Of a stretch of DNA of 64,000 nucleotides, positions 12,380 to 23,891 are shown one piece after another; the stretch's first letter is position 1, and the number at the start of each line of letters is the position of its first letter. The stretch covers positions 1 through 64,000 of the forward strand of contig NZ_CP107902.1 of NCBI RefSeq assembly GCF_036013935.1, given 5' to 3'. The notes below the pieces were generated by a model that saw only the letters and a list, made by a program, of their open reading frames with translations, was not told the DNA's origin and searched no databases. The translations under genes were made by a program, and so were the position numbers. The DNA comes from Streptomyces sp. NBC_00461 (GTDB lineage Bacteria; Actinomycetota; Actinomycetes; Streptomycetales; Streptomycetaceae).

Positions 12380-12956
12380 TTACGGAGGTTGGAGGTCGAG
12401 CGCGGTTTTGGCGATGAGTCCCTCGATGAGGCGGGGGCGGTACTGCATCCGCTTCAGCCGCGTCTTCACCAACGCGGTGAGCTGGTCGAGGCTGTGTTTG
12501 GTGAGGTTGGCCAGCGACCTCTTCAGGTGTGACCACACGCCCTCGACCGGGTTGAGTTCGGGAGGGTACGGGGGCAGCTGGTAAACGGTCAGCCATAATC
12601 GAGCGTCGATCAGCTCGTGCATGGCGCGGCTGACGTGCGTGTTCAAGTTATCCCACACCAAGACGATGGGGCCGTCGAGCTGCTGGTGCGCGGCATCCAG
12701 CAGGCGGGCGTAGTCGGTCTCGGTGAAGCCCTTGCGGCGGCCCTTGGCGGGACCACGCTCGAAGTGGATGCGGTAGATCAGCCGAGGCCGATGACCGTCT
12801 TTGGCGCAGATCAGCGCCGCCATCGAGACGCGTTTGGTGCCTGCGGCGGTGACGTGCACCACCGGGGTGTGGCCCCGTCGGCCCCAGGTGCGGCCCTTGG
12901 GCGGCCTCAGGCCCTGGCCGGCTTCGTCCTCGAAGCAGAGCCAGGCGCCCAAGTCC
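12380..12956 (-). pseudogene. IS630-family transposase, N-terminus lost
   Basis: The DDE domain is complete: WLCFEDEAGQGLRPPKGRTWGRRG (first Asp), IVLVWDNLNTH (second) and LPPYPPELNPVEGVWSHLKR (Glu). The frame remains open upstream, but from 12957 it encodes ISAs1 sequence in the wrong frame, so the HTH half has been replaced. The 3' end of the gene and of the element is near 12380. Confidence 0.8.
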
Positions 12957-13113
12957 GCCGCAGTTGCCGGTCGGTGTGGGTGCGTCGTGCGGCGGCGATG
13001 TTGACGTGCCCGGCCAGTTTGAGGGCGCCTCGGATCAGGTCGCGGAGGCGGCCAGGACAGCGGGGGTGTTGTGGGCCCTGACCTGGGACTTGTCCTCGTT
13101 GAAGGTGACATCC
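12957..13113 (-). pseudogene. Fragment of the ISAs1 copy seen at 23 kb
   Basis: This stretch is nearly identical to 23095-23250, the 3' part of the ISAs1 transposase (DLIRGALKLAGHVNIAAARRTHTDRQ), with a one-base deletion (gaggcgg against gacggcgg). It joins IS630 sequence on the left and a different ISAs1 element on the right. Confidence 0.8.
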
Positions 13114-13154
13114 CAGGGCCGTTGCAAAGTCTGACGAACTTGAATCCTTGCTGG

Positions 13155-14320
13155 TCAGGTCAATCCGAGGAGATCGAGTGGACGACGGAAGGGCTCGTAG
13201 GACATCTCGCGGATCCCGGCGGCGATGTTGGCGTGGCCTGCCGCTCGCAGGACGTTGATCGCAAAGCTGCGGAGCGTGGCCATGTTCTGCGGCCCGTACC
13301 CGGTGCGGATCTTCGAGGCGTCTTCGGCGAAGGTGGTGTCGCGGACGAAGTGGAGCCTGTTCTCGATCACCCACTGGGAACGGGCCAGCTGTCCGAGCCG
13401 CTGGGGGGATGCCTGGCGGGCTGTCAGGTCGGTGAGCGCGTAGACGGTCTGCCGGGTGACCTTGCAGGTCCTGATGTCGGTGCGGTGGCGCAGGATTTTC
13501 ACGGCCTGGACCGCGTGGGGAAAGTCCAGGCCGAGCTCGGTGACCGTCAAGGCCCTGGTCGCCCTCGTCTCCTTGCGGCCGTGCCCCGTCTCGCGGTCGT
13601 AGCGCCGGGCGGTGGCATGCTTCCACGGCAGTGCCCTCAACTGCCGCAACAACCCGGGCTGGTTGGCCTTGACCACCAGCAGATAGTGCGCCTGCTTCTC
13701 CTCCACCAGGAACCGGGCGTGGGCGCGCTGAGTGTGCAGCGCGTCGGCGGTCACCGTCACGCCCGCCAGGTCGAACGGCTCCAGCAGGGCAGCGGCAGGT
13801 GATCTCGTCGGTCTTGTCCGGCACCCGCAGCTGGGCGACTGTCTGCCCGGCGCCGGTCATCGCGGCCAGCAGGTGCGCGGCCGGGCCGGTGACGGTGCGC
13901 GAGCCCCGGGCACTCTTGCCGTCCACCGCGAGGGTGCCGGCCCCGGCCGGATCGGTGCCGAGCAGGTCGGCGAGCCCGCCCGGGCAGACCGCATTCAGGA
14001 CGCGGCGCACGGTCGCTGCGCTCGGCGCTACGCGGACGCTGAACACCGTGGCCACGCGGGCGCCGAGCCGGGCGAGGGCCGCCTGCGGGGCCGACTTGGC
14101 CCACTGGCCGATCGACGTGAACGAGCGGGCCCCGGCCAGTACGGCGGAGCAGGCGATCAGCAGCACGCTCACGAACGAGTAACGCCTCCCGCGCCGGTGG
14201 CGCGGATCGGCCAGCGTGGCCAGTCGCTGCGGCAGATGCGGGAGCGCGCGGTGCTGACGCGAGGGCGACTTGATCAGGCAGACGCTGGCAGACTGACGGC
14301 TGGCTTCCTTGCGGATCTTG
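13155..14320 (-). pseudogene. ISAs1-family transposase, frameshifted
   Basis: Joined frames give an almost full transposase: an N-terminal HLPQRLATLADPRHRRGRRYSF, then TLAVDGKSARGSR (first catalytic Asp), then VTVTADALHTQRAHARFLVEEKQ (second Asp, with the ISAs1 DALHTQ signature) and SQWVIENRLHFVRDTTFAED (catalytic Glu region). A one- or two-base indel near 13800 separates the halves. CAGGGCCGTTGCAAAGTC at 13119-13136 is a likely element end. It is a different ISAs1 member from the copy at 23 kb. Confidence 0.75.
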
Positions 14321-14394
14321 AGGCGTAGACACCTTCATGATCGACAAGGGCCGTGTCCGTCTGCGTTCGGGGCGCATCAACACGAGATCATCGC

Positions 14395-14426
14395 GAACCG
14401 GACATCCAGGGGAGAACGCCGGGGCC
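14395..14426. repeat. ISAs1-type terminal sequence, left side of cluster
   Basis: 29 bases (14395-14423) are the exact reverse complement of 23031-23059. The two lie just outside the microcin C-like operon and point towards each other as the ends of two IS copies in the same orientation. Confidence 0.75.
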
Positions 14427-14459
14427 GTGGCGCAGCCTGTGGCGCCATCGAGCAGTGAT

Positions 14460-15221
14460 TCAGGCGGACTTGACGGCGATCCAGCCGCCGAAGTTCATCC
14501 ATCTCCAGAAACAATCGATGCGGTGGAACCCCGCCTGTCGCAGGAGCTCGACATTCCATTTGGCGGTCACAGGCACCAAAACGCCTTCAAGGGACAGAGC
14601 CTTGCGATCGATATCTTCAGGACTATAACCGTTCTGCATTTTAAGCTGATGGTAGAGCTTGACCATCAGATTGTTCATATCGGAGTCGGAACCCAGCACC
14701 TTCTCCACCAGAACAAGGGCCCCACCGGGTGCCGTATGGTCGTAGATCTGCCGCATGATGCGTTGCCTGTGCTCGATAGGGATGAACTGGAGAGTGAGCA
14801 CAGCCAAGGTCAAGTCGGCCTGCACGTCAGGGTAGAAGTCGCGCATGTCCCGCTGGTGCACCTCGACGGAGCCCTCCACACAGCCGACCGCGAACCGCTG
14901 CCGCAGGGCCTTGGCCATCGGCTCTGACGCCTCAAGGCAGACGAACCGCCCATCGCCTTGGAGCGCTGCGACGAAAGGGGCGATCGCTTCTCCTCGGGAA
15001 GCTCCGCAGTCGACGATCGTGGATCCCCGTCGGACGAATTCCGAGCCGCAGGCGAAGACAGTGTTCCGCATGACCTCGTACTGCGGGATACTGCGGGCCA
15101 GCATGTTGTCAAAAACACGCGTGACCTCCGGGTCGAAGGTCCAGCGGCCCTGTGGGACAACGCGGTCGACCTCGCCGGCCGTGGGCCAGACGTCCTGACG
15201 GTGGGGGGCGGGAAACGCCAC
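14460..15221 (-). CDS. CmoA-like SAM enzyme, MccS candidate
   Basis: 253 residues from a GTG preceded by GAAGGAG; the upstream ATG at 15236 has no Shine-Dalgarno. It aligns along its length with E. coli CmoA as I remember it: GRWTFDPEVTRVFDNMLARS, VDCGASRGEA (SAM motif I), LTLQFIPIEHRQRIM, APGGALVLVEK, KMQNGYSPEDIDRK and FWRWMNFGGW. CmoA makes carboxy-SAM from SAM and prephenate. In Yersinia and Bacillus microcin C-type pathways a CmoA homologue (MccS) supplies carboxy-SAM to the methyltransferase half of MccB, and a fused MccB is encoded three genes upstream. By my unaided alignment the position of CmoA Arg199 is Ala here, so carboxy-SAM synthesis is not assured. Last gene of the operon. Confidence 0.8.
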   Translation of the reverse strand: MAFPAPHRQDVWPTAGEVDRVVPQGRWTFDPEVTRVFDNMLARSIPQYEVMRNTVFACGSEFVRRGSTIVDCGASRGEAIAPFVAALQGDGRFVCLEASEPMAKALRQRFAVGCVEGSVEVHQRDMRDFYPDVQADLTLAVLTLQFIPIEHRQRIMRQIYDHTAPGGALVLVEKVLGSDSDMNNLMVKLYHQLKMQNGYSPEDIDRKALSLEGVLVPVTAKWNVELLRQAGFHRIDCFWRWMNFGGWIAVKSA

Positions 15222-15253
15222 GGCAGACTCCTTCAATGTGATGAGCGAGATGA

Positions 15254-16453
15254 TCAGCGGATATCTGTTCCCGGCTCACGCAGACGCGCGAATTCGGTGC
15301 CGAACTCCGGGAGCGCATACACTGCCGGGCGAGGGCGAACCCAGACGTTGGCGCTGGGGATGTCATAGCCGCCGGCGGCGCCGATGATGACGCGGTCCCC
15401 GGGGCGGAGACCAGCAGGGCCGACGATCCGCGCAGCGAAGAGGTCCGACTCGTAGCACATGGCGCCGTAGAGGTCATAGCGGAGGCTGCCTTGATTGCCT
15501 GGCTGGAGGAACTCCACCGGGTGGTGCCATCCGTTGATTGAGCGGACCAGGTTCGTGCCTGCGTCCAGCACGACCACATCCCGGCGGTGACGCGGTTTGC
15601 GGACGGCGACCGAGGCCACCAGCACCGCGTGGTCCTCGACCAGACTGCGGCCGGGCTCGATCACCAAGTGCAAGGCCTCAAGGGGGAGCCCGAGCGCACG
15701 GCACTCGGCGGCAACCTCCTTGGCGTACACCGACCACGGGGGCAGCGGCACTCCGGGGGCACAACTAGCGGCGGGGAACCCACCGCCGATGTCCACGGTC
15801 AGTGGTTCGGCGGACTGAGCGAGCAGATCGCTGAGTTGCTCTCGCCAGTGACGGAGAACAGCGCGATAGGGCTCTGCCTCCAGCGGGTGGAGTCCGGTGT
15901 TGAAATGGATGCCACGCACAGGAATGTCTGCGGCGGTCAGGATGCGACGCGCCTGTTCGACCTCGCTGGGCAGCAGCCCGAACCGGGACCAGCGCCGTCG
16001 TCCCCGGGGCACCGCAAGCCGCAACGACACCCGCGGGCATGCGCCCCCGACCGCCCGGTCGGCGAGCGCCTGCACCTCCGCAATGCTGTCGGCTTGGATG
16101 AGGACACCCAAGGCCACAGCCTGGTCAAGCTCGGAGGGGAGCTTCACCGGCCCATCGAAGTACACCTGGGACGGAGCGAAGCCGTCGGCCAGAGCCGCCG
16201 CCAACTCGGCTCCCGATACGACTTCGGCTGCGGCACCGCACTCCCTCAAGAGCGTGGTGACGCCGGGCAGAGCGTTTGTCTTGTACGAATACGCCATCGT
16301 GAAGCGGGGGAACTCCTGGCGCCAGGCCTTGGCCATCGCGAACGCGGTCTGCTTGATCGCTTCCAGGTCGAACAGGTAAAACGGCGTGGAAAGCTCGACG
16401 GCCGCGTGCACGCCGGACCTCAGGCGCTCGGAGATCAACGCTTGGCCCGCCAA
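15254..16453 (-). CDS. PLP-dependent decarboxylase, MccE N-domain-like
   Basis: 399 residues, fold-type III (ornithine/diaminopimelate decarboxylase family). The N-terminal barrel carries the PLP lysine in AYSYKTN (Lys58), IHFNTGLHP, a Gly-rich phosphate loop DIGGGFP and VIEPGRSLV. The C-terminal domain has YGAMCYESDLF, the partner-subunit active-site Cys region. The most likely role is decarboxylating the 3-amino-3-carboxypropyl group placed by the preceding enzyme, as MccE's N-terminal domain does in microcin C. Unlike E. coli MccE it has no fused acetyltransferase. The TTG start at 16453 overlaps the upstream gene end by about 19 bases; a GTG further in is an alternative. Confidence 0.85.
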   Translation of the reverse strand: MAGQALISERLRSGVHAAVELSTPFYLFDLEAIKQTAFAMAKAWRQEFPRFTMAYSYKTNALPGVTTLLRECGAAAEVVSGAELAAALADGFAPSQVYFDGPVKLPSELDQAVALGVLIQADSIAEVQALADRAVGGACPRVSLRLAVPRGRRRWSRFGLLPSEVEQARRILTAADIPVRGIHFNTGLHPLEAEPYRAVLRHWREQLSDLLAQSAEPLTVDIGGGFPAASCAPGVPLPPWSVYAKEVAAECRALGLPLEALHLVIEPGRSLVEDHAVLVASVAVRKPRHRRDVVVLDAGTNLVRSINGWHHPVEFLQPGNQGSLRYDLYGAMCYESDLFAARIVGPAGLRPGDRVIIGAAGGYDIPSANVWVRPRPAVYALPEFGTEFARLREPGTDIR

Positions 16454-17247
16454 ACACCGACCATGAGCCCCTGGAAAGAGCGGTGCTCGTCCAGCACTAG
16501 CCGAGTCTCCCGCAGGCGGTGGAAGCAGGCGTCGCGCACCGGCCGCGAGACGCCCGCCAGGGCCGGCACCCGACCGTAGACGGACTTCCGGACCGTCCGG
16601 GTGACACGACGCGGGCCCAACGACGGGGTGTCGCGCAGCACCTCGTCCACCAGTTCGAACTTCTGGGAGAAAAAGTCAACCCAGAAGCTGCGGTCACGCC
16701 CGGCGTCGGTGCGGAACCCGATGGCGTCGGCCACCTGGTCCAGCAGGTGAGCGGGCGGGCGCTTCCGGTAGTAGAAGGCGGAGACGCACAGCAGCCCGCC
16801 GGGGCGAAGGACGCGGTGCACCTCGTCGAGGGCCCGCTCGCGCTGTTCTATGAAGCCGAAATTGCAGCCCCCCAGGACGTGTGTGAACGAGTTGTCAGCC
16901 AGCGGCAGGTCCGCGGCGTCGGCGACCTGGTACGAGAAGGCAGGGTTGTGGTTGGCGTACCCACGCGCCTGCCTGACGGAGTCTTCGGAAATGTCGATGC
17001 CGTGAACGGATGCCCCGGTGAGCCCATGAGTGGTGCGGCCCGACCAGCCTGTTGAACAAGCCAGGTCCAGCAGGTGGGAGTTGCTGTCGATCGATGCCAT
17101 GGAGACCCACTCGTCGACCGTCCGGAACGCGCCAGGCGGGGTGTTGTGCTGGCCGAGGAAGGCGACGAAGTCGGGGTAACTCTTGTCGAATACGGCACTG
17201 ACACCGGGCTGGCGGAGGTCCAACCGCCCCGGGGTGCGAACAAACAC
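16435..17247 (-). CDS. SAM-dependent transferase, MccD candidate
   Basis: 270 residues from a GTG with AAGGAGATC six bases upstream; the frame is open further back across the peptide gene, but that part has no coding character. A class I fold is visible: LDLACSTGWSGR (motif I), VHGIDIS (acidic loop), DLPLADNSFTHVLG and LDEVHRVLRPGG. Beside the PLP decarboxylase it is best read as an MccD-type 3-amino-3-carboxypropyl transferase acting on the phosphate; an ordinary methyltransferase is the alternative. The next gene overlaps its end. Confidence 0.8.
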   Translation of the reverse strand: MFVRTPGRLDLRQPGVSAVFDKSYPDFVAFLGQHNTPPGAFRTVDEWVSMASIDSNSHLLDLACSTGWSGRTTHGLTGASVHGIDISEDSVRQARGYANHNPAFSYQVADAADLPLADNSFTHVLGGCNFGFIEQRERALDEVHRVLRPGGLLCVSAFYYRKRPPAHLLDQVADAIGFRTDAGRDRSFWVDFFSQKFELVDEVLRDTPSLGPRRVTRTVRKSVYGRVPALAGVSRPVRDACFHRLRETRLVLDEHRSFQGLMVGVWRAKR

Positions 17248-17264
17248 TCTTGATCTCCTTTGTC

Positions 17265-17303
17265 GCTGCGGGGTGCCGGGCTCGGGGCCCGGCACCCCGC
17301 AGC
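17265..17303 (-). terminator. Perfect hairpin after the precursor gene
   Basis: Two 17-base arms, perfectly complementary, enclose a 5-base loop. The hairpin starts seven bases after the precursor stop codon and ends just before the Shine-Dalgarno of the next gene. There is no U-tract, as is usual in Streptomyces. It could stabilise the short peptide mRNA and limit read-through into the downstream enzymes. In E. coli a terminator between mccA and mccB has a comparable role. Confidence 0.8.
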
Positions 17304-17309
17304 CAGTGA

Positions 17310-17378
17310 CTAGTTCATCCAGCTGCGCTGGTTGCCCTTGATGCGGATGATCCGGCGGATCTTCAGAACGATGCTCAT
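17310..17378 (-). CDS. Precursor peptide ending in Asn (MccA-like)
   Basis: 22 codons. The peptide begins MSIVLKIRR, continues with Ile, Arg and Lys, and ends QRSWMN. GGGAGGTGG lies eight bases before the ATG. Microcin C precursors end in Asn, whose carboxamide is nucleotidylated by MccB; E. coli MccA is the heptapeptide MRTGNAN. This peptide is longer, strongly basic (seven Arg/Lys) and has no acidic residue, so it may resemble a cell-penetrating carrier. It lies directly after the ThiF/MccB gene and before a strong hairpin. No Cys, Ser/Thr cluster or leader cleavage motif suggests another RiPP class. Confidence 0.85.
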   Translation of the reverse strand: MSIVLKIRRIIRIKGNQRSWMN

Positions 17379-17431
17379 GGTGGGTGCCACCTCCCTTCCG
17401 TGGATTCGTTGGGCCTGGGAACCGATGCCGA

Positions 17432-19273
17432 TCAGAAGTTCGCCCGGGGCGAACTCTGGGCACCGGTGCTCTCGGGGCGAAGAACGAAGGCCAGGAAGTA
17501 CGGGATTCTGGATGCCTTCGCCCAGATCTCGGGATGCGAAGAAGCGACTTCGTCCTGAGGCTGCGGTTCGTAGAGCTCGGTGATCTGGAAGCCGGCTTGG
17601 CGGAATGCGGCGAAGTAGGTCTGGACAGTCCGATGGTGGGTGGTTATGGCGTCCATGACGATGTCGCCTTGCGATCCTTCGCGGTGCTTGGTGACCGGGC
17701 CTTCCGTGAAGTAGTGCTCCAGCCGAAGATCCTCGTACTGCCACTGGCCGCGGTCGTTCCTGCGGTTCCAGCTGGCGCCGTCCTTTATCGGGTGGGGCAC
17801 GGTGACGACGACTGTCCCGTCCTGACGGACGGCGCGGCGCAGGTCGGCCAGTACAGGTGCGAGGTCAGCAACATGGTCGAGGACGTTGTTACACACGACC
17901 AGATCGAACTCGGCCTCGTAGGGGGGCAGCCGATCGCCTGCTACGGTGCTCACCCGGCTGACGAGCTCGTCGGGGATGTTCTGCCGCAGCATGTCGAGCA
18001 TCCGGGTTGACCGGTCGAAGCCCACGACTTGGGCGCCTAGGCTCGCGAGCATCCGTACCTGCTCACCGGTGCCGCATCCATAGTCGAGGGCCTTGGCGCC
18101 AGGCTTCACAGCGGTGAGTTGTTCCATCAACGGATCCAGGACCACCGAGTTGAGCGACGCGTCTGCGCGGTCGGACTCGTACAGATCCTCTAGCGCCACG
18201 CTCTGGACTGCCGTCGACCAGCGTGGGTCGGGAATGACAGGTCCGCAGGAGGTGCAGTCGGAGCGTCGCGGGAAGTGTTCGCTGTGCAGCCTGTAGGAAC
18301 GGGAGTCGAGCATGAGCCTGGTTCCGGCGGAACGGCAGTCACCGCCGAGGAGGCAGCGCAGTACCTCGTTGGCTGCCATGGCTGCCACTATGAGGTTGAG
18401 CGGGCCGTAGCTGCCTGCCTGCAGCCCTAGGTTGAGGTTGGGACCGGGCTTCTCACCGGGTTCGAGGTACTGCTCGAGTTCGCCGATGTCCCGAAAGCAC
18501 TCGTAACAGGCCGTGGTTCCGGGGAGCACCAACGGTCCAACAGCGCCGAAGGACTCCAGGTACCCCGCGGCCAGGTAGCCGAAGGAATGCCTGCGCGCGG
18601 CGTCATCGATCCACTCATGCAGTTCGTCGGGGCTGTCGGCGGAGAGCACGGCGAGGTCGCATTGCGCCAGGTGCTCGTCGAACAGCTCGGGGCCGGCCGG
18701 GGCGCGGACCGTAGTGATCTCGACCGTGGAGTTGAGTCGGTTCAACCGCTCTGCCGCCACCTCGACCTTGGGTCGGCCCACGCTGTTCTCGTCGTAGAGG
18801 AACTGGCGGGTCAGGTTGCTCAGTTCAACGTGGTCGCCGTCCGTGAGTATCAGTTGCCCAACCCCGGCGGTGGCAAGCAGGGTGGCCACGTTGCTGCCGA
18901 TGCCGCCGGTTCCGACCACAGCGACGGTCGCATTCGACAGGACCTGCTGGGCGTCGGCCGGGTCCAGGCCCATCATGTCGAAATACAGCAGGTGACGGGC
19001 GTACCGCGTGCTGTCCGGTATCGGGGCACCGATCACACGGGCGTCCGCGAGCTGAGCGAGCATGTCCTCGGCCCCCTCAGGGCTGAACCCTGCGTCAACT
19101 AGGTGCGCGACCGCCGCGCCGCGGTCGGTTGGGGCGGAAAGCAGGGCGACCAGATCGGTGAGGAAGTCGGGGGCGTCCAGGATCTCGGTACCGTTGGGTG
19201 GCAGGTGGCCGATCCGGAGTGTCGTTCCGAGCTTGCGCACTTCCAGATAGGGCTTGATCTGCAGCGTGTTCAT
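17432..19273 (-). CDS. ThiF/MccB-like adenylase fused to methyltransferase
   Basis: 613 residues. Residues 1-90 form a small N-terminal domain that may clamp the peptide. The E1-like domain follows: VVGTGGIGSNVA (ATP loop, 120-130), LTDGD (144-147), NLTRQFLYDE (Arg156) and two CxxC pairs (Cys256/259 and Cys340/343) for a structural zinc. From about 390 a class I SAM domain begins (LDYGCGTGEQV, 396-405; DLVVCNNVLDHV). MccB enzymes use NTP to attach a nucleotide to the precursor's terminal Asn. In Yersinia and Bacillus MccB, a C-terminal SAM domain carboxymethylates the cytosine with carboxy-SAM. The same two-domain order here predicts a modified cytidine product. The ATG is preceded by a weak purine-rich site; the S51 peptidase gene ends 21 bases upstream. 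Confidence 0.88.
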   Translation of the reverse strand: MNTLQIKPYLEVRKLGTTLRIGHLPPNGTEILDAPDFLTDLVALLSAPTDRGAAVAHLVDAGFSPEGAEDMLAQLADARVIGAPIPDSTRYARHLLYFDMMGLDPADAQQVLSNATVAVVGTGGIGSNVATLLATAGVGQLILTDGDHVELSNLTRQFLYDENSVGRPKVEVAAERLNRLNSTVEITTVRAPAGPELFDEHLAQCDLAVLSADSPDELHEWIDDAARRHSFGYLAAGYLESFGAVGPLVLPGTTACYECFRDIGELEQYLEPGEKPGPNLNLGLQAGSYGPLNLIVAAMAANEVLRCLLGGDCRSAGTRLMLDSRSYRLHSEHFPRRSDCTSCGPVIPDPRWSTAVQSVALEDLYESDRADASLNSVVLDPLMEQLTAVKPGAKALDYGCGTGEQVRMLASLGAQVVGFDRSTRMLDMLRQNIPDELVSRVSTVAGDRLPPYEAEFDLVVCNNVLDHVADLAPVLADLRRAVRQDGTVVVTVPHPIKDGASWNRRNDRGQWQYEDLRLEHYFTEGPVTKHREGSQGDIVMDAITTHHRTVQTYFAAFRQAGFQITELYEPQPQDEVASSHPEIWAKASRIPYFLAFVLRPESTGAQSSPRANF

Positions 19274-19294
19274 GGCAGGTCCAACTTTCGGGTC

Positions 19295-19999
19295 TTAGAA
19301 CGTCAGGAGGCGGGACGGAAGCGCTGTCTCGGTCACCTTGCCGTCGGTGCCGCAGGTGACTCGGTGGAGCGTTGCTCCGGCCTTCCTGGCCACTACCTCG
19401 GTGGGGAGGCCATCGGTGAACAGGGCTGCCGCTGCGTCGTCGAGGGCCCATCCCGCCGGGAGTGTGCCGGAGGCGACCGCGTCCAGGTAGGCGGGGAGGC
19501 GTTCGGCCTCGCTGTCGTAGTGCGGGCACAGGCTGCCGGGCAGCAGCCCGAGGCCATCCCGCAGGGGGGCCACCGGACCGAAAGAGTCGGTGAGGCAGGC
19601 ATCCATCCAACAGGCGGCACCGGCGCTGATGCCGCACAGCAGCACCCCTGCCTGGTAGGCCCCGTGAAGGATTTCGTACAGGCCGTGCAGTCGCCACACC
19701 GCAAGCAGATTCGCCGTGTTGCCACCGCCCACGTACACCACGTCCTGCCCCAGGAGGCAGCTGCGGAGGTCCAGGTGAGCGCGGCGAAACAGCGTAAGGT
19801 GGGTCGGCTCGCAGTCCCGCCGGCCGAAGGCGGCGTGGAATCGGTCGATGTAGCCCGTCGAGTCTCCACTTGCGGTAGGGATGAAGCAGACCTTCGGCCG
19901 TTCCTTACTCACGACGTCGAGGACGAAATCGTCGAGCAGGGGGTCGGGGTCGTCGGAGAACCCACCGCCTAGCAGCACAATCCTTCGCGGACGGGACAT
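19295..19999 (-). CDS. Peptidase S51 (PepE/cyanophycinase-type)
   Basis: 234 residues. IVLLGGGFSDD opens the domain, VYVGGGNTANLL follows, and the nucleophile elbow is LLCGISAGAACW (Ser125). PepE-type enzymes cut dipeptides with N-terminal Asp. Processed microcin C is an aspartyl-nucleotide with a free Asp amino group, so an enzyme of this class could destroy it and give self-immunity; that is my inference. E. coli uses an S66 peptidase (MccF) for this. The ATG at 19999 has AGAGGAAG upstream and the MFS gene stops five bases before it, so coexpression is likely. Confidence 0.82.
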   Translation of the reverse strand: MSRPRRIVLLGGGFSDDPDPLLDDFVLDVVSKERPKVCFIPTASGDSTGYIDRFHAAFGRRDCEPTHLTLFRRAHLDLRSCLLGQDVVYVGGGNTANLLAVWRLHGLYEILHGAYQAGVLLCGISAGAACWMDACLTDSFGPVAPLRDGLGLLPGSLCPHYDSEAERLPAYLDAVASGTLPAGWALDDAAAALFTDGLPTEVVARKAGATLHRVTCGTDGKVTETALPSRLLTF

Positions 20000-20004
20000 G
20001 GTGC

Positions 20005-21306
20005 CTACTTCCTCTCCGGGCACAGTGACTCAGCTCCCGGTGGCCGCTGTCTCCAGCGGCTCCGAAGCGTCGACGGTGGATCGGGGCGGCTCCTGAGCCG
20101 ACGAACCTGCGGCACGAGCAGCACCACAACGGGCACCGACAGGGCGAGCAGCAGGCTCGCGCCGCGCAGGGTCGCATGCTGGCCGGCGGCCGCGGCGGCG
20201 CTGCCCGCAATCAGGTAGCCGAAGGGGCGGAGGCACGAGGACCCGATCCGGTCGAACGCCGCCACCCGACCTAGCCGGTCCTGCGGTGTCTCTCGCTGCA
20301 ACGTTGTCTCCCAGAAGGCGTCGGCAGCCGCGAACCCGGCGCCTGCCAGAGCCGTGGCTGCCATCAGCGCGGGGAGCCAACCGATCCCTGAGAGCGCCGC
20401 CATCGCCGGCGTGCAGACGAGCAGAGCCACCTGCATGGCGACGAGCGGTCGAGCCGGTCTGAGCCGTAGGGACAGCATGCTCCCGATCAGCGAACCGGCG
20501 CCGAAACCGGTCACGAGGACTCCCCACGCGTCGGCACCCCCCAGCGAGGAGCGAGCGATGACGGGACCCAACGTGAAGAACCCGGCGAAACACGCTTGGA
20601 AGAGCAGCCCCTGGGCGATGCCTGCCACCAACCAAGGACGTGAGCTCACCTCGTGCCAGCCTTCGGCGAGTTCCCGTCCGACCCTACGTGGCAGTCCGCC
20701 GACCTTGGGCTCGACCTGGCTCCGGTGGCGGAGCGCCAGGAGCAGGGACGCGGACAGCAGAAATGTCGCCGCGTCCGTCAGTAGCGCCCAACCAGGTGCT
20801 GCGGCGGCCACGAGAACACCGGAGACCGCGGGGCCCAGCATGCCGGCCGCGTTGCTGACCAGGCCGAGCAGGCCGTTGGCGCGCTGCAGTTCGCTGCCCG
20901 GCACGGTCACTGGGGTCAGGCCGGTGGCTGCCGGGGGGAAGAACGCGCTGGCAGCCCCCAGCATGGCCTGCAGCACCACGATGAGCCAGACCGTTGCGTG
21001 GCCGCTGAGGACCGCCGTCGCCAGGGTGCCCTGAACGATCGCGCAGACCAGGTCGCTGGAGACCATGACACGCGCTCGGGGCAGACGGTCGGCCCAAACT
21101 CCGCCGAACACCAGGAAGACGACATTGGGGAGCGTTCGGGCGGCCAGCACGAGGCCCAACGCACCAGCGGACGGCACGGACTGAAGCACCGCAAAGGCGA
21201 CTGCTACCAGGGCGAGTTCGGTGCCGAACCGGGAGAGAGCGTGCGCGGCCAGCAGACGGCGGAAGTCCGGGTGGCGCAACGGAGCGAGAGTCGGGGGAAG
21301 TCTCAC
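20005..21306 (-). CDS. MFS exporter (MccC-like role)
   Basis: 433 residues with about twelve hydrophobic segments and the intracellular loop GGVWADRLPRARVM (motif A form GxxADRxxRR). It belongs to the enterobactin-exporter/macrolide-efflux (MFS_3) group. The GTG at 21306 overlaps the preceding stop (GTGA) with GGAG nine bases upstream; the frame extends 345 bases further upstream over the previous gene and is not credible there. In microcin C operons an MFS pump (MccC) exports the product, and the same role is inferred here. Confidence 0.85.
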   Translation of the reverse strand: MRLPPTLAPLRHPDFRRLLAAHALSRFGTELALVAVAFAVLQSVPSAGALGLVLAARTLPNVVFLVFGGVWADRLPRARVMVSSDLVCAIVQGTLATAVLSGHATVWLIVVLQAMLGAASAFFPPAATGLTPVTVPGSELQRANGLLGLVSNAAGMLGPAVSGVLVAAAAPGWALLTDAATFLLSASLLLALRHRSQVEPKVGGLPRRVGRELAEGWHEVSSRPWLVAGIAQGLLFQACFAGFFTLGPVIARSSLGGADAWGVLVTGFGAGSLIGSMLSLRLRPARPLVAMQVALLVCTPAMAALSGIGWLPALMAATALAGAGFAAADAFWETTLQRETPQDRLGRVAAFDRIGSSCLRPFGYLIAGSAAAAAGQHATLRGASLLLALSVPVVVLLVPQVRRLRSRPDPPSTLRSRWRQRPPGAESLCPERK

Positions 21307-22463
21307 CGGGAACTCCAGCGATCGTCCTGGTCCACGCGGGCTTCCCACCACCGCACGGGAGGCTCGCCGAGACCAAGAGGCTTGACAAATCGGTATGCCT
21401 CGAAGGGCGACAGTGTGATCGCCAGGTCGTAGGGGCGGCCGTGCTGGTCGTACAACTCCCGAATCCGTGAGCGCACCGCGGACGAGATGATCCCACCGCT
21501 GCCGGGGCTCACCGCCCGGTCGAAGGCATGGTCGGCTTGCAGGAGCAGGAAGGTGTAGGGCTCGCCGAAGCTGTGCCGGGCATGATCCGCCGGATAACAG
21601 GGCGCCATCGTCACGAGAAACATCCGCTCGCCGGCGAAAGTGAAGTACCACCCCTGACGCTCGGGGGACCGCAAGCCGCGACGGCCGCGGCCGTCCTCGG
21701 CAGCGAGCCCATCCAGCACTTGGCGCGTCGTAGCCGCCAACCGATCCACCGAATCCCCGAAGGAACCTGGCAGGGCCAGGACGAGCCCATCCACCGGATC
21801 CCGGCGGGCAGCCTCAGCGAATCCGCGCACCAGGGGCGCCCACGCACGGACAGCGTCGTCGATACAGCGTCCGGTCCACGAGGCCATCCAGATGACGGAG
21901 CGCCGGGCAAAGACGCACTGCGTTCGCCCCAGTACGCGGCCAAAGGCTTCAGCTTGTTCGCCAGACACCGGAGACCAGTCGCCGCAGTCCACACCACCGC
22001 CTACCTTGAGCGAAACTTCTGCGTGGCCAAGGCCACCCTGCCCGGACGCGCATGCGGCACGCAGGGCTCCGATCCGTGCGGACACTCGCCCCAGCAGCAC
22101 AGCAAGGGATGCCTTTCTGAGCCTCAACCGCTGCCAGGCCGTCAACCGCACCGCTCCCGAGTAAGCGTCGACGAGTCGCTCGATGGTCGCAGTGTCGGCA
22201 CGCAAGCCCTCGGCAATGCGGCCTCTCCCCATGGGCAGAGAATATGGAATCGCATGCTTTCCGATCAGTCGTGCCAGCTCAGCGGCTGCCCCTTCAGCGG
22301 AATCGAGAAATGCAACTGTCTCGGCGCGACTCCCCAGGAATACCTGAGCTGCCGACTCACTCAGCAGCCGAGCTGTTGAGCGCATTCCTGTTGCGGGGGC
22401 AGGATCCCGGAAATCTTGCTCGGTCGCCGCCTGCGAAATTGCAACCTGCGACTGTTTTGGCAT
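21303..22463 (-). CDS. YqcI/YcgG-like protein, first operon gene
   Basis: 386 residues from an ATG with a strong GGAGGTGA. The C-terminal half has TQCVFARRSVIW and WYFTFAGERMFLVTMAPCYP, which resemble the YqcI/YcgG family (CxFAxxA and FxFxG...VxxHP). The N-terminal 150 residues are helical and not recognised. No signal peptide. Its function in this operon is unknown; possible roles are an extra tailoring step on the peptide or nucleotide, or immunity. The gene ends in a 4-base overlap with the exporter. Confidence 0.65.
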   Translation of the reverse strand: MPKQSQVAISQAATEQDFRDPAPATGMRSTARLLSESAAQVFLGSRAETVAFLDSAEGAAAELARLIGKHAIPYSLPMGRGRIAEGLRADTATIERLVDAYSGAVRLTAWQRLRLRKASLAVLLGRVSARIGALRAACASGQGGLGHAEVSLKVGGGVDCGDWSPVSGEQAEAFGRVLGRTQCVFARRSVIWMASWTGRCIDDAVRAWAPLVRGFAEAARRDPVDGLVLALPGSFGDSVDRLAATTRQVLDGLAAEDGRGRRGLRSPERQGWYFTFAGERMFLVTMAPCYPADHARHSFGEPYTFLLLQADHAFDRAVSPGSGGIISSAVRSRIRELYDQHGRPYDLAITLSPFEAYRFVKPLGLGEPPVRWWEARVDQDDRWSSR

Positions 22464-22975: not shown

Positions 22976-23026
22976 TCAACCCGAAGCACGGCGCTTGACT
23001 CCTACTACCGGCCTACGACAACCCCA

Positions 23027-23060
23027 GGGGCCCGGCGTTCTCCCCTGGATGTCCGGTTCA
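23027..23060. repeat. ISAs1-type terminal sequence, right side of cluster
   Basis: The left end of the ISAs1 copy that follows. 23031-23059 is the exact reverse complement of 14395-14423. It sits directly after the transposase stop, on the side facing the microcin C-like operon. Confidence 0.75.
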
Positions 23061-23891
23061 TGGTGATCTTGTGATGCCGTAGAGGGTGAGGACTCGTTGC
23101 CGGTCGGTGTGGGTGCGTCGTGCGGCGGCGATGTTGACGTGCCCGGCCAGTTTGAGGGCGCCTCGGATCAGGTCGCGGACGGCGGCCAGGACAGCGGGGG
23201 TGTTGTGGGCCCTGACCTGGGACTTGTCCTCGTTGAAGGTGACATCCCGGCACCAGTGGACGGTATTTTCCACGGTCCAGTGCCCGCGAGCCCAGGAAGC
23301 GATCTCGGCGGCGGTGGCCTGCTCGGCGGGCAGGTCGGTGATCGCGTAGACGGTCTCGGTGGACCACCGTTTCACTCCGGCCTTGCGGCGCTTGCGCGTG
23401 ATCCGCAGGACCTGGCGGGCGTGCGGGAACAGCAGGCCGTTGACGGTGACGATCTGGACGTGGCGTTGTTCGTGGCGTCCGTGCGCGTCCTGCGAGTCGT
23501 GGTCGTCGCGGTGGATGACCGGGATGTCCTTCCAGGGCAAGCCGGCCAACTGCGCGGCGAGCTTCCGCTGGTTGGCCTTGATCGTGAACAGATAGCGAGC
23601 GCCGCGTTGTTCGACCAGGTAGTGGGCGTGGGCGCGTTGTGCGTGCAGGGCGTCCACAGTGATCACGGCCCCGGTCAGGTCGGTGTCGTCGATCTGGTCC
23701 AGGAGCGGGGCGAACTCCGGAATTTCGTTGGTCTTCGCGCCGATTTCACGGCTGGCCAGGGTGATGCCGTCGCCGTGACGGACGGCAGACAGGACGAAGA
23801 CACAGCTGCCGCCGAGCTCGAGCGCCGTCACCGTGCGCGGGCCCGCACGGAGGACTGGATCCGCAGCCGCCCGTGCCACCGGCCTGCGCAA
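23058..23891 (-). pseudogene. ISAs1-family transposase, N-terminus missing
   Basis: About 265 of some 370-400 expected residues remain. AVITVDALHAQRAHAHYLVEQRGARYLFTIKANQ carries the second catalytic Asp and the DALHAQ signature, and RGHWTVENTVHWCRDVTFNEDKSQ the Glu region. The first DDE Asp (DGK motif) lies in the missing part. The 5' end joins a truncated sigma-like gene near 23900, so the element has lost its right end. Confidence 0.8.

What the first reader, a model, noticed from the sequence alone, without database searches (positions are those of the whole stretch)
14427..22463. Microcin C-like peptidyl-nucleotide operon in a streptomycete
Eight minus-strand genes, mostly overlapping or closely spaced, contain nearly every element of a microcin C-type pathway. 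They are a short peptide ending in Asn, an MccB-like ThiF enzyme with a C-terminal SAM domain, a CmoA-like enzyme (MccS role), a SAM enzyme with a fold-III PLP decarboxylase (MccD/MccE pair), an MFS exporter (MccC role) and a self-protection peptidase candidate. The predicted product is a basic peptide linked through Asp to a nucleotide, probably a carboxymethylated cytidine bearing an aminopropyl group. Such a compound would be taken up, processed and then block an aminoacyl-tRNA synthetase. I know this class from enterobacteria, Bacillus and a few others, not as a characterised Streptomyces product.
Basis: partly seen in the sequence, partly recalled or inferred. Interest (0 to 1): 0.95.

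Follow-up and report, generated by a model that had tools for sequence, protein, structure and literature searches.

The report
Streptomyces microcin C-type antibiotic operon
A streptomycete carries, near both ends of its linear chromosome, a complete set of genes for a microcin C-type Trojan-horse antibiotic (a small peptide tied to a modified cytidine nucleotide), gene for gene like one already studied in Nocardia; one gene of unknown role looks like an oxygen-inserting heme enzyme.

The parts
21303..22463 (-). mccX: YqcI/YcgG family protein (386 aa), likely thiolate-heme N-oxygenase fold in residues 160-359, with a helical N-terminal extension
20005..21306 (-). mccC: MFS exporter (433 aa)
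   Evidence: MFS_1 1.9e-36; 51% to N. vaccinii MccC; no detectable similarity to E. coli MccC
19295..19999 (-). mccG: S51 peptidase, self-immunity (234 aa)
   Evidence: Peptidase_S51 5.9e-43; 61% to N. vaccinii MccG with Ser125/His160/Asp188 on its triad
17432..19273 (-). mccB: bifunctional nucleotidyltransferase (ThiF part) and carboxymethyltransferase (C-terminal SAM domain), 613 aa
   Evidence: PDB best hits E. coli MccB 3e-43; tree; ThiF and methyltransferase domains; 54% to N. vaccinii MccB
17310..17378 (-). mccA: 22-aa precursor MSIVLKIRRIIRIKGNQRSWMN
   Evidence: sequence; similarity to N. vaccinii MccA
16435..17247 (-). mccD: SAM-dependent aminocarboxypropyl transferase (270 aa)
   Evidence: 42% over 256 aa to E. 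coli MccD, 1e-73; 53% to N. vaccinii MccD
15254..16438 (-). mccE1: fold-III PLP decarboxylase (394 aa), TTG start assumed
   Evidence: Orn_Arg_deC_N 5.7e-26; 28% over 388 aa to the N-terminal part of E. coli MccE, 4e-40; 57% to N. vaccinii MccE1
14460..15221 (-). mccS: CmoA-like carboxy-SAM synthase (253 aa)
   Evidence: TIGR00740 CmoA 153.2 bits, below its cut-off of 193.3; best PDB hits YecO and CmoA; 68% to N. vaccinii MccS
14378..14430 (.). left insertion-sequence end facing the operon (53-nt inverted repeat arm)
   Evidence: 87% complementary to 23024-23076
23024..23076 (.). right insertion-sequence end facing the operon (53-nt inverted repeat arm)

Best explanation
This is a complete microcin C-type peptidyl-nucleotide operon of the N. 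vaccinii / M. abscessus / Y. pseudotuberculosis kind. MccA is made as a 22-mer. MccB turns its C-terminal Asn into isoAsn joined by a P-N bond to CMP. MccS makes carboxy-SAM, which the C-terminal domain of MccB uses to carboxymethylate the cytosine. MccD puts an aminocarboxypropyl group on the phosphate and MccE1 decarboxylates it to aminopropyl. MccC exports the compound. In a target cell peptidases release an isoAsn-carboxymethylcytidylate that blocks aspartyl-tRNA synthetase; MccG hydrolyses that warhead in the producer. MccX is probably a thiolate-heme N-oxygenase-like protein with an unidentified substrate. Shown here by sequence: gene set, order, homologies, catalytic residues. Shown elsewhere for orthologues: cytidylation and carymethylation by MccB-Nva, MccG hydrolysis, AspRS as target of studied compounds. 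Inferred: that the same happens in this strain, the aminopropyl group, export, uptake, target range, and any role of MccX.
For: Collinearity and 48-68% identity with the N. vaccinii operon over seven proteins plus the precursor; MccB tops PDB matches as E. coli MccB and groups with N. vaccinii and M. abscessus MccB; MccB has both ThiF and SAM domains; MccD 42% and MccE1 28% to E. coli MccD and MccE; MccS best to CmoA; MccG triad kept; experiments on the orthologues in PMC9239234 (parts 1-4 of 5 read). A mass calculation by the same chemistry gives 553.165 for the processed compound, as in that paper.
Against: No product, transcript or activity is known for this strain. MccC shows no similarity to E. 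coli MccC. The MccS match is below the CmoA model's cut-off. MccX has no assigned role in the published pathway, so the end product may differ. Whether a 22-mer is trimmed as in Yersinia is unknown; only one PF01523 (TldD-type) match was found in the genome.
Confidence: 0.88

Rival explanations
1. The operon makes a microcin C-type compound whose final form differs from the N. vaccinii prediction, for example because MccX oxidises it or the aminopropyl step does not occur.
For: MccX has the fold and heme-ligand Cys of N-oxygenases; the aminopropyl group is by analogy also in PMC9239234.
Against: Orthologous mccX is said to be present in Y. pseudotuberculosis, whose processed compound weighs m/z 553.16 without extra oxygen (PMC9239234; my calculation 553.165, or 569.160 with one oxygen). 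MccD and MccE1 are both well conserved.
Confidence: 0.25
2. The operon is a silent or decaying acquired element that makes nothing.
For: It lies between two insertion-sequence copies at a chromosome end and is rare: of 392 genus genomes only the own one has a full-length match at E <= 1e-60.
Against: All eight frames are open with good ribosome sites and no TTA codon, catalytic residues are kept, and related operons occur in other genera. The promoter scan found nothing above chance, which says little in Streptomyces.
Confidence: 0.1
3. The ThiF enzyme performs another peptide modification, such as macrocyclisation (as the IndF-type enzymes named in a listing), and the product is not a nucleotide conjugate.
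For: ThiF-like enzymes serve several peptide pathways; the precursor contains Trp (RSWMN).
Against: MccB-type grouping, the carboxymethyltransferase, MccS, MccD, MccE1 and MccG partners, and the in vitro result for the 54% identical orthologue (PMC9239234).
Confidence: 0.02

Closest known systems
Nocardia vaccinii NBRC 15922 mcc operon (PMC9239234; locus L005)
   Same: Same genes in the same order X-C-G-B-A-D-E1-S, 48-68% identity, related 21-aa precursor ending in Asn
   Different: Window precursor is 22 aa with another C-terminal half; window MccX has an in-frame N-terminal extension of about 155 aa, the deposited N. vaccinii protein (209 aa, P0063) has not
Mycobacteroides abscessus mcc operon (PMC9239234; MccB = P0021)
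   Same: MccB 51% identical, same branch; mccG in the same place according to the paper
   Different: Operon not examined here
Yersinia pseudotuberculosis mcc operon (PMC9239234 and passages of PMC6495379)
   Same: Bifunctional MccB, MccS, MccD, MccE1, MccX according to the paper; carboxymethyl-cytidylate product
   Different: 42-aa precursor trimmed to 11 aa; immunity by acetyltransferase MccE2, no MccG; not examined here
Escherichia coli microcin C7 operon (L025, plasmid of ATCC 25922)
   Same: MccB 32%, MccD 42%, MccE N-part 28%
   Different: 7-aa precursor MRTGNAN, adenylate, no carboxymethyltransferase, MccS, MccG or MccX; MccC not similar; MccE carries an extra acetyltransferase part
AglA and other YqcI/YcgG heme N-oxygenases (for MccX only)
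   Same: Fold over MccX 160-359; AglA Cys44, Arg166, Arg200 fall on MccX Cys183, Arg296, Arg331
   Different: About 20% identity; AglA Lys196 and Arg179 not kept by my reading; substrate unknown; no reductase gene in the operon

Membership tests
microcin C-type peptidyl-nucleotide RiPPs | short precursor gene ending in Asn next to mccB | tested here: met
   22-aa frame ending AAC-TAG, 53 bp after mccB; similar to N. vaccinii MccA
microcin C-type peptidyl-nucleotide RiPPs | ThiF enzyme of MccB type rather than ThiF/MoeB | tested here: met
   (35-row tree; 28 of the 49 proteins used, one own ThiF match, L022, not recovered)
microcin C-type peptidyl-nucleotide RiPPs | exporter in the operon | tested here: met
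   MFS protein, 51% to N. vaccinii MccC, but not similar to E. coli MccC; transport not tested
microcin C-type peptidyl-nucleotide RiPPs | product is a peptide joined by a P-N bond to a nucleotide and inhibits AspRS | not testable with these tools
   shown for orthologues in PMC9239234 only
carboxymethyl-cytidylate subtype | C-terminal SAM domain on MccB plus CmoA-like MccS | tested here: met
carboxymethyl-cytidylate subtype | MccD and MccE1 for the aminopropyl group | tested here: met
   (homology only)
N. vaccinii-type mcc operons | mccG between mccC and mccB and the same gene order | tested here: met
MccG immunity peptidases | Ser/His/Asp triad of MccG-Nva | tested here: met
   Ser125, His160, Asp188 align with Ser133, His168, Asp196; no S51 tree was built
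YqcI/YcgG thiolate-heme N-oxygenases (MccX) | family profile and fold | tested here: met
   PF08892 over cut-off; AglA first in profile, Foldseek and VIA-align comparisons
YqcI/YcgG thiolate-heme N-oxygenases (MccX) | axial Cys ligand | tested here: met
   C183 in 15 of 15 MccX rows and the aligned Cys in 13 of 13 YqcI rows (14 loci fetched, 13 aligned); that Cys is AglA Cys44 through L026
YqcI/YcgG thiolate-heme N-oxygenases (MccX) | Arg166/Lys196/Arg200 contacts to heme propionates | tested here: inconclusive
   Arg166 and Arg200 equivalents kept in 15 of 15, Lys196 equivalent not
YqcI/YcgG thiolate-heme N-oxygenases (MccX) | heme binding and N-oxygenation | not testable with these tools
   needs purified protein

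The most novel reading that the evidence does not exclude
[quoted passage not shown] The same module would be shared with peptide-free relatives such as L057, where an MccX domain is fused to a lysyl-tRNA-synthetase-like domain beside MccD and MccE1 homologues and no MccB was found: a possible route to an amino-acid-nucleotide without a ribosomal peptide.
Probability: 0.3. Interest if true: 0.75.

Novelty: new member of a known kind. Interest (0 to 1): 0.5.

Why it matters
It places an intact, two-copy carboxymethyl-cytidylate microcin C-type operon in a Streptomyces genome, with a defined precursor, masses and enzyme set that can be tested directly in laboratory hosts. The MccX assignment turns the one unassigned gene of the published operons into a concrete biochemical hypothesis.

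Tried and rejected

Literature limits: the listings showed no paper on this cluster in Streptomyces, but I opened only some of those papers, the two most likely to list it (PMC8323819, PMC4010828) are not held, and supplements could not be opened. So I do not claim that it is not in print. What I saw: PMC9239234 parts 1-4 of 5; PMC12866846 part 1 of 7 and passages; passages only of PMC10849742, PMC2922099, PMC7157772, PMC7136475, PMC12250964, PMC6495379.

Full report
OBSERVATION. Eight open minus-strand genes lie at 14460-22463, in the order mccX, mccC, mccG, mccB, mccA, mccD, mccE1, mccS. Spacing is operon-like (4-bp overlaps X/C and D/E1, gaps 5-62 bp). The precursor reads MSIVLKIRRIIRIKGNQRSWMN and ends in Asn.

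IDENTITY OF THE OPERON. A scan of genome contigs with an alignment of 21 MccB-like proteins returned 7 loci. One, L005, is the N. vaccinii operon of PMC9239234. Its proteins are collinear with the window: X 48%, C 51%, G 61%, B 54%, D 53%, E1 57%, S 68% identity over the aligned stretches. Its MccA (MKIVLKLKRIVRGAGPIIVSN, the peptide named in the paper's methods) lies in the same slot. The local alignment of the two precursors scores 39 against a mean of 19.5 in shuffles, with 12 of 10,000 shuffles reaching it. In PMC9239234 (parts 1-4 of 5) recombinant MccB-Nva makes the peptidyl-cytidylate and its carboxymethylated form, MccG-Nva protects E. coli and cleaves the processed compounds, and the aminopropyl group is assigned by analogy. 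The paper names M. abscessus as another carrier and calls the mccX product a protein of unknown function.

ENZYMES. MccB: the best PDB hits are three E. coli MccB sequences (3e-43 to 5.3e-43), then ThiF (1.9e-24); MoeB is at 3.2e-20. In a 35-row tree of the ThiF part (28 of the 49 proteins, window included, plus 4 locus proteins, E. coli MccB and ThiF, and the strain's MoeZ), ThiF and MoeZ separate at 100/100. The window falls in a 14-row branch (100/99) with N. vaccinii P0016 and M. abscessus P0021; its nearest row is P0009, labelled Actinacidiphila glaucinigra. The program flags six long rows, E. coli MccB among them, and one own-genome ThiF match (L022) gave no frame in my script and was left out. 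Gly121-Gly126, Arg156, Lys169, Asp213 and Cys256/259/340/343 lie in invariant columns of the 21-row alignment, apart from Leu/Thr at unlisted positions; their roles (ATP site, zinc) are recalled. MccD and MccE1 are 42% and 28% identical to E. coli MccD and the N-terminal part of MccE; MccE1 lacks the C-terminal part, and MccC has no detectable similarity to E. coli MccC. MccS matches the CmoA model at 8.9e-45 but below its cut-off; its best PDB hits are YecO and CmoA. MccG Ser125/His160/Asp188 align with the triad mutated in MccG-Nva.

WHAT MCCX MIGHT ACT ON. For the nucleotide: MccX is present in 3 of 3 loci read here with a carboxymethyltransferase-type MccB (window, L005, L006) and in 0 of 4 minimal loci (L007-L010); S. 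pinicola has MccX with an Arg-free precursor, and no MccD or MccE1 was found there, though its contig ends 6.5 kb downstream. Against: the published processed Yersinia compound (m/z 553.16) has no extra oxygen. MccX-like genes also occur away from MccB: 0 of 8 further loci (L044-L048; L057-L059, where only gene-called frames were compared and the MccX frame of L058 was not recovered) show an MccB match. In L048 the neighbours are a methyltransferase, Ham1, a LOG-type protein, a FemAB-like protein, P450 and an amino-acid-ligase-type ATP-grasp protein; L046 and L047 share several of these by eye. L044, L045 and L059 have other neighbours, L045 and L059 apparently NRPS genes by eye. So the context is mixed.

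RARITY AND PLACE. At E <= 1e-60 MccB matches occur in 3 of 392 genus genomes, own included, the other two over the ThiF half only; in 4 of 394 family genomes, own included, one of the others full-length at 44%; and in 1 of 396 phylum genomes, the own one. These samples overlap. The window is bases 1-64000 of a 10.37-Mb contig whose other end repeats it inverted, without a mismatch over the first 80 kb compared, so the operon is present twice. It is bounded by insertion-sequence ends forming 53-nt inverted repeats (87%), with transposase frames on both sides. The two copies share identical blocks of 84 and 68 nt; other shared stretches reported are 79-81% alike. This fits an old composite transposon, an inference. 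GC of the operon is 66.5% against 68.1% for the window.

SECOND TYPE. Four records (three Streptomyces, one labelled Microtetraspora glauca; L007-L010) carry a small A-C-B set: a 19-aa precursor ending in SGRAFN, an MFS gene and an MccB about 42% identical to the ThiF half, without the C-terminal domain. By comparison with E. coli these may make simpler nucleotide conjugates; inferred only.

VERDICT. Its value lies in the Streptomyces host, the two-copy chromosome-end location and the testable heme-enzyme assignment for MccX.

Noticed in passing
   Followed up: partly
L007:8543-8602, L008:8527-8586, L009:8542-8601, L010:4227-4286 (+): Minimal A-C-B mcc-like sets in Streptomyces with a conserved 19-aa precursor such as MLKIIKVVAARAVSGRAFN.
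   Followed up: partly
L006:12586 (+): Streptacidiphilus pinicola carries tandem copies of its mcc precursor gene (MLKIVKKPVVKTDSIMVHN), at least two complete, between mccS and mccX.
   Followed up: partly
window 1-64000: The whole window lies in a terminal inverted repeat of at least 80 kb, identical at both ends of the 10.37-Mb chromosome.
   Followed up: yes
window 12910-14430 and 23024-23891: Two related insertion-sequence copies flank the operon with transposase frames on the same strand, sharing identical 84- and 68-nt blocks, as in a composite transposon; a second transposase type (DDE_3) lies at 12380-13108.
   Followed up: partly
L005:6860-7300: Upstream of N. vaccinii mccX another frame encodes a stretch resembling the N-terminal extension of the window's MccX, as if the gene were split there (by eye).
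   Followed up: no
   Followed up: partly
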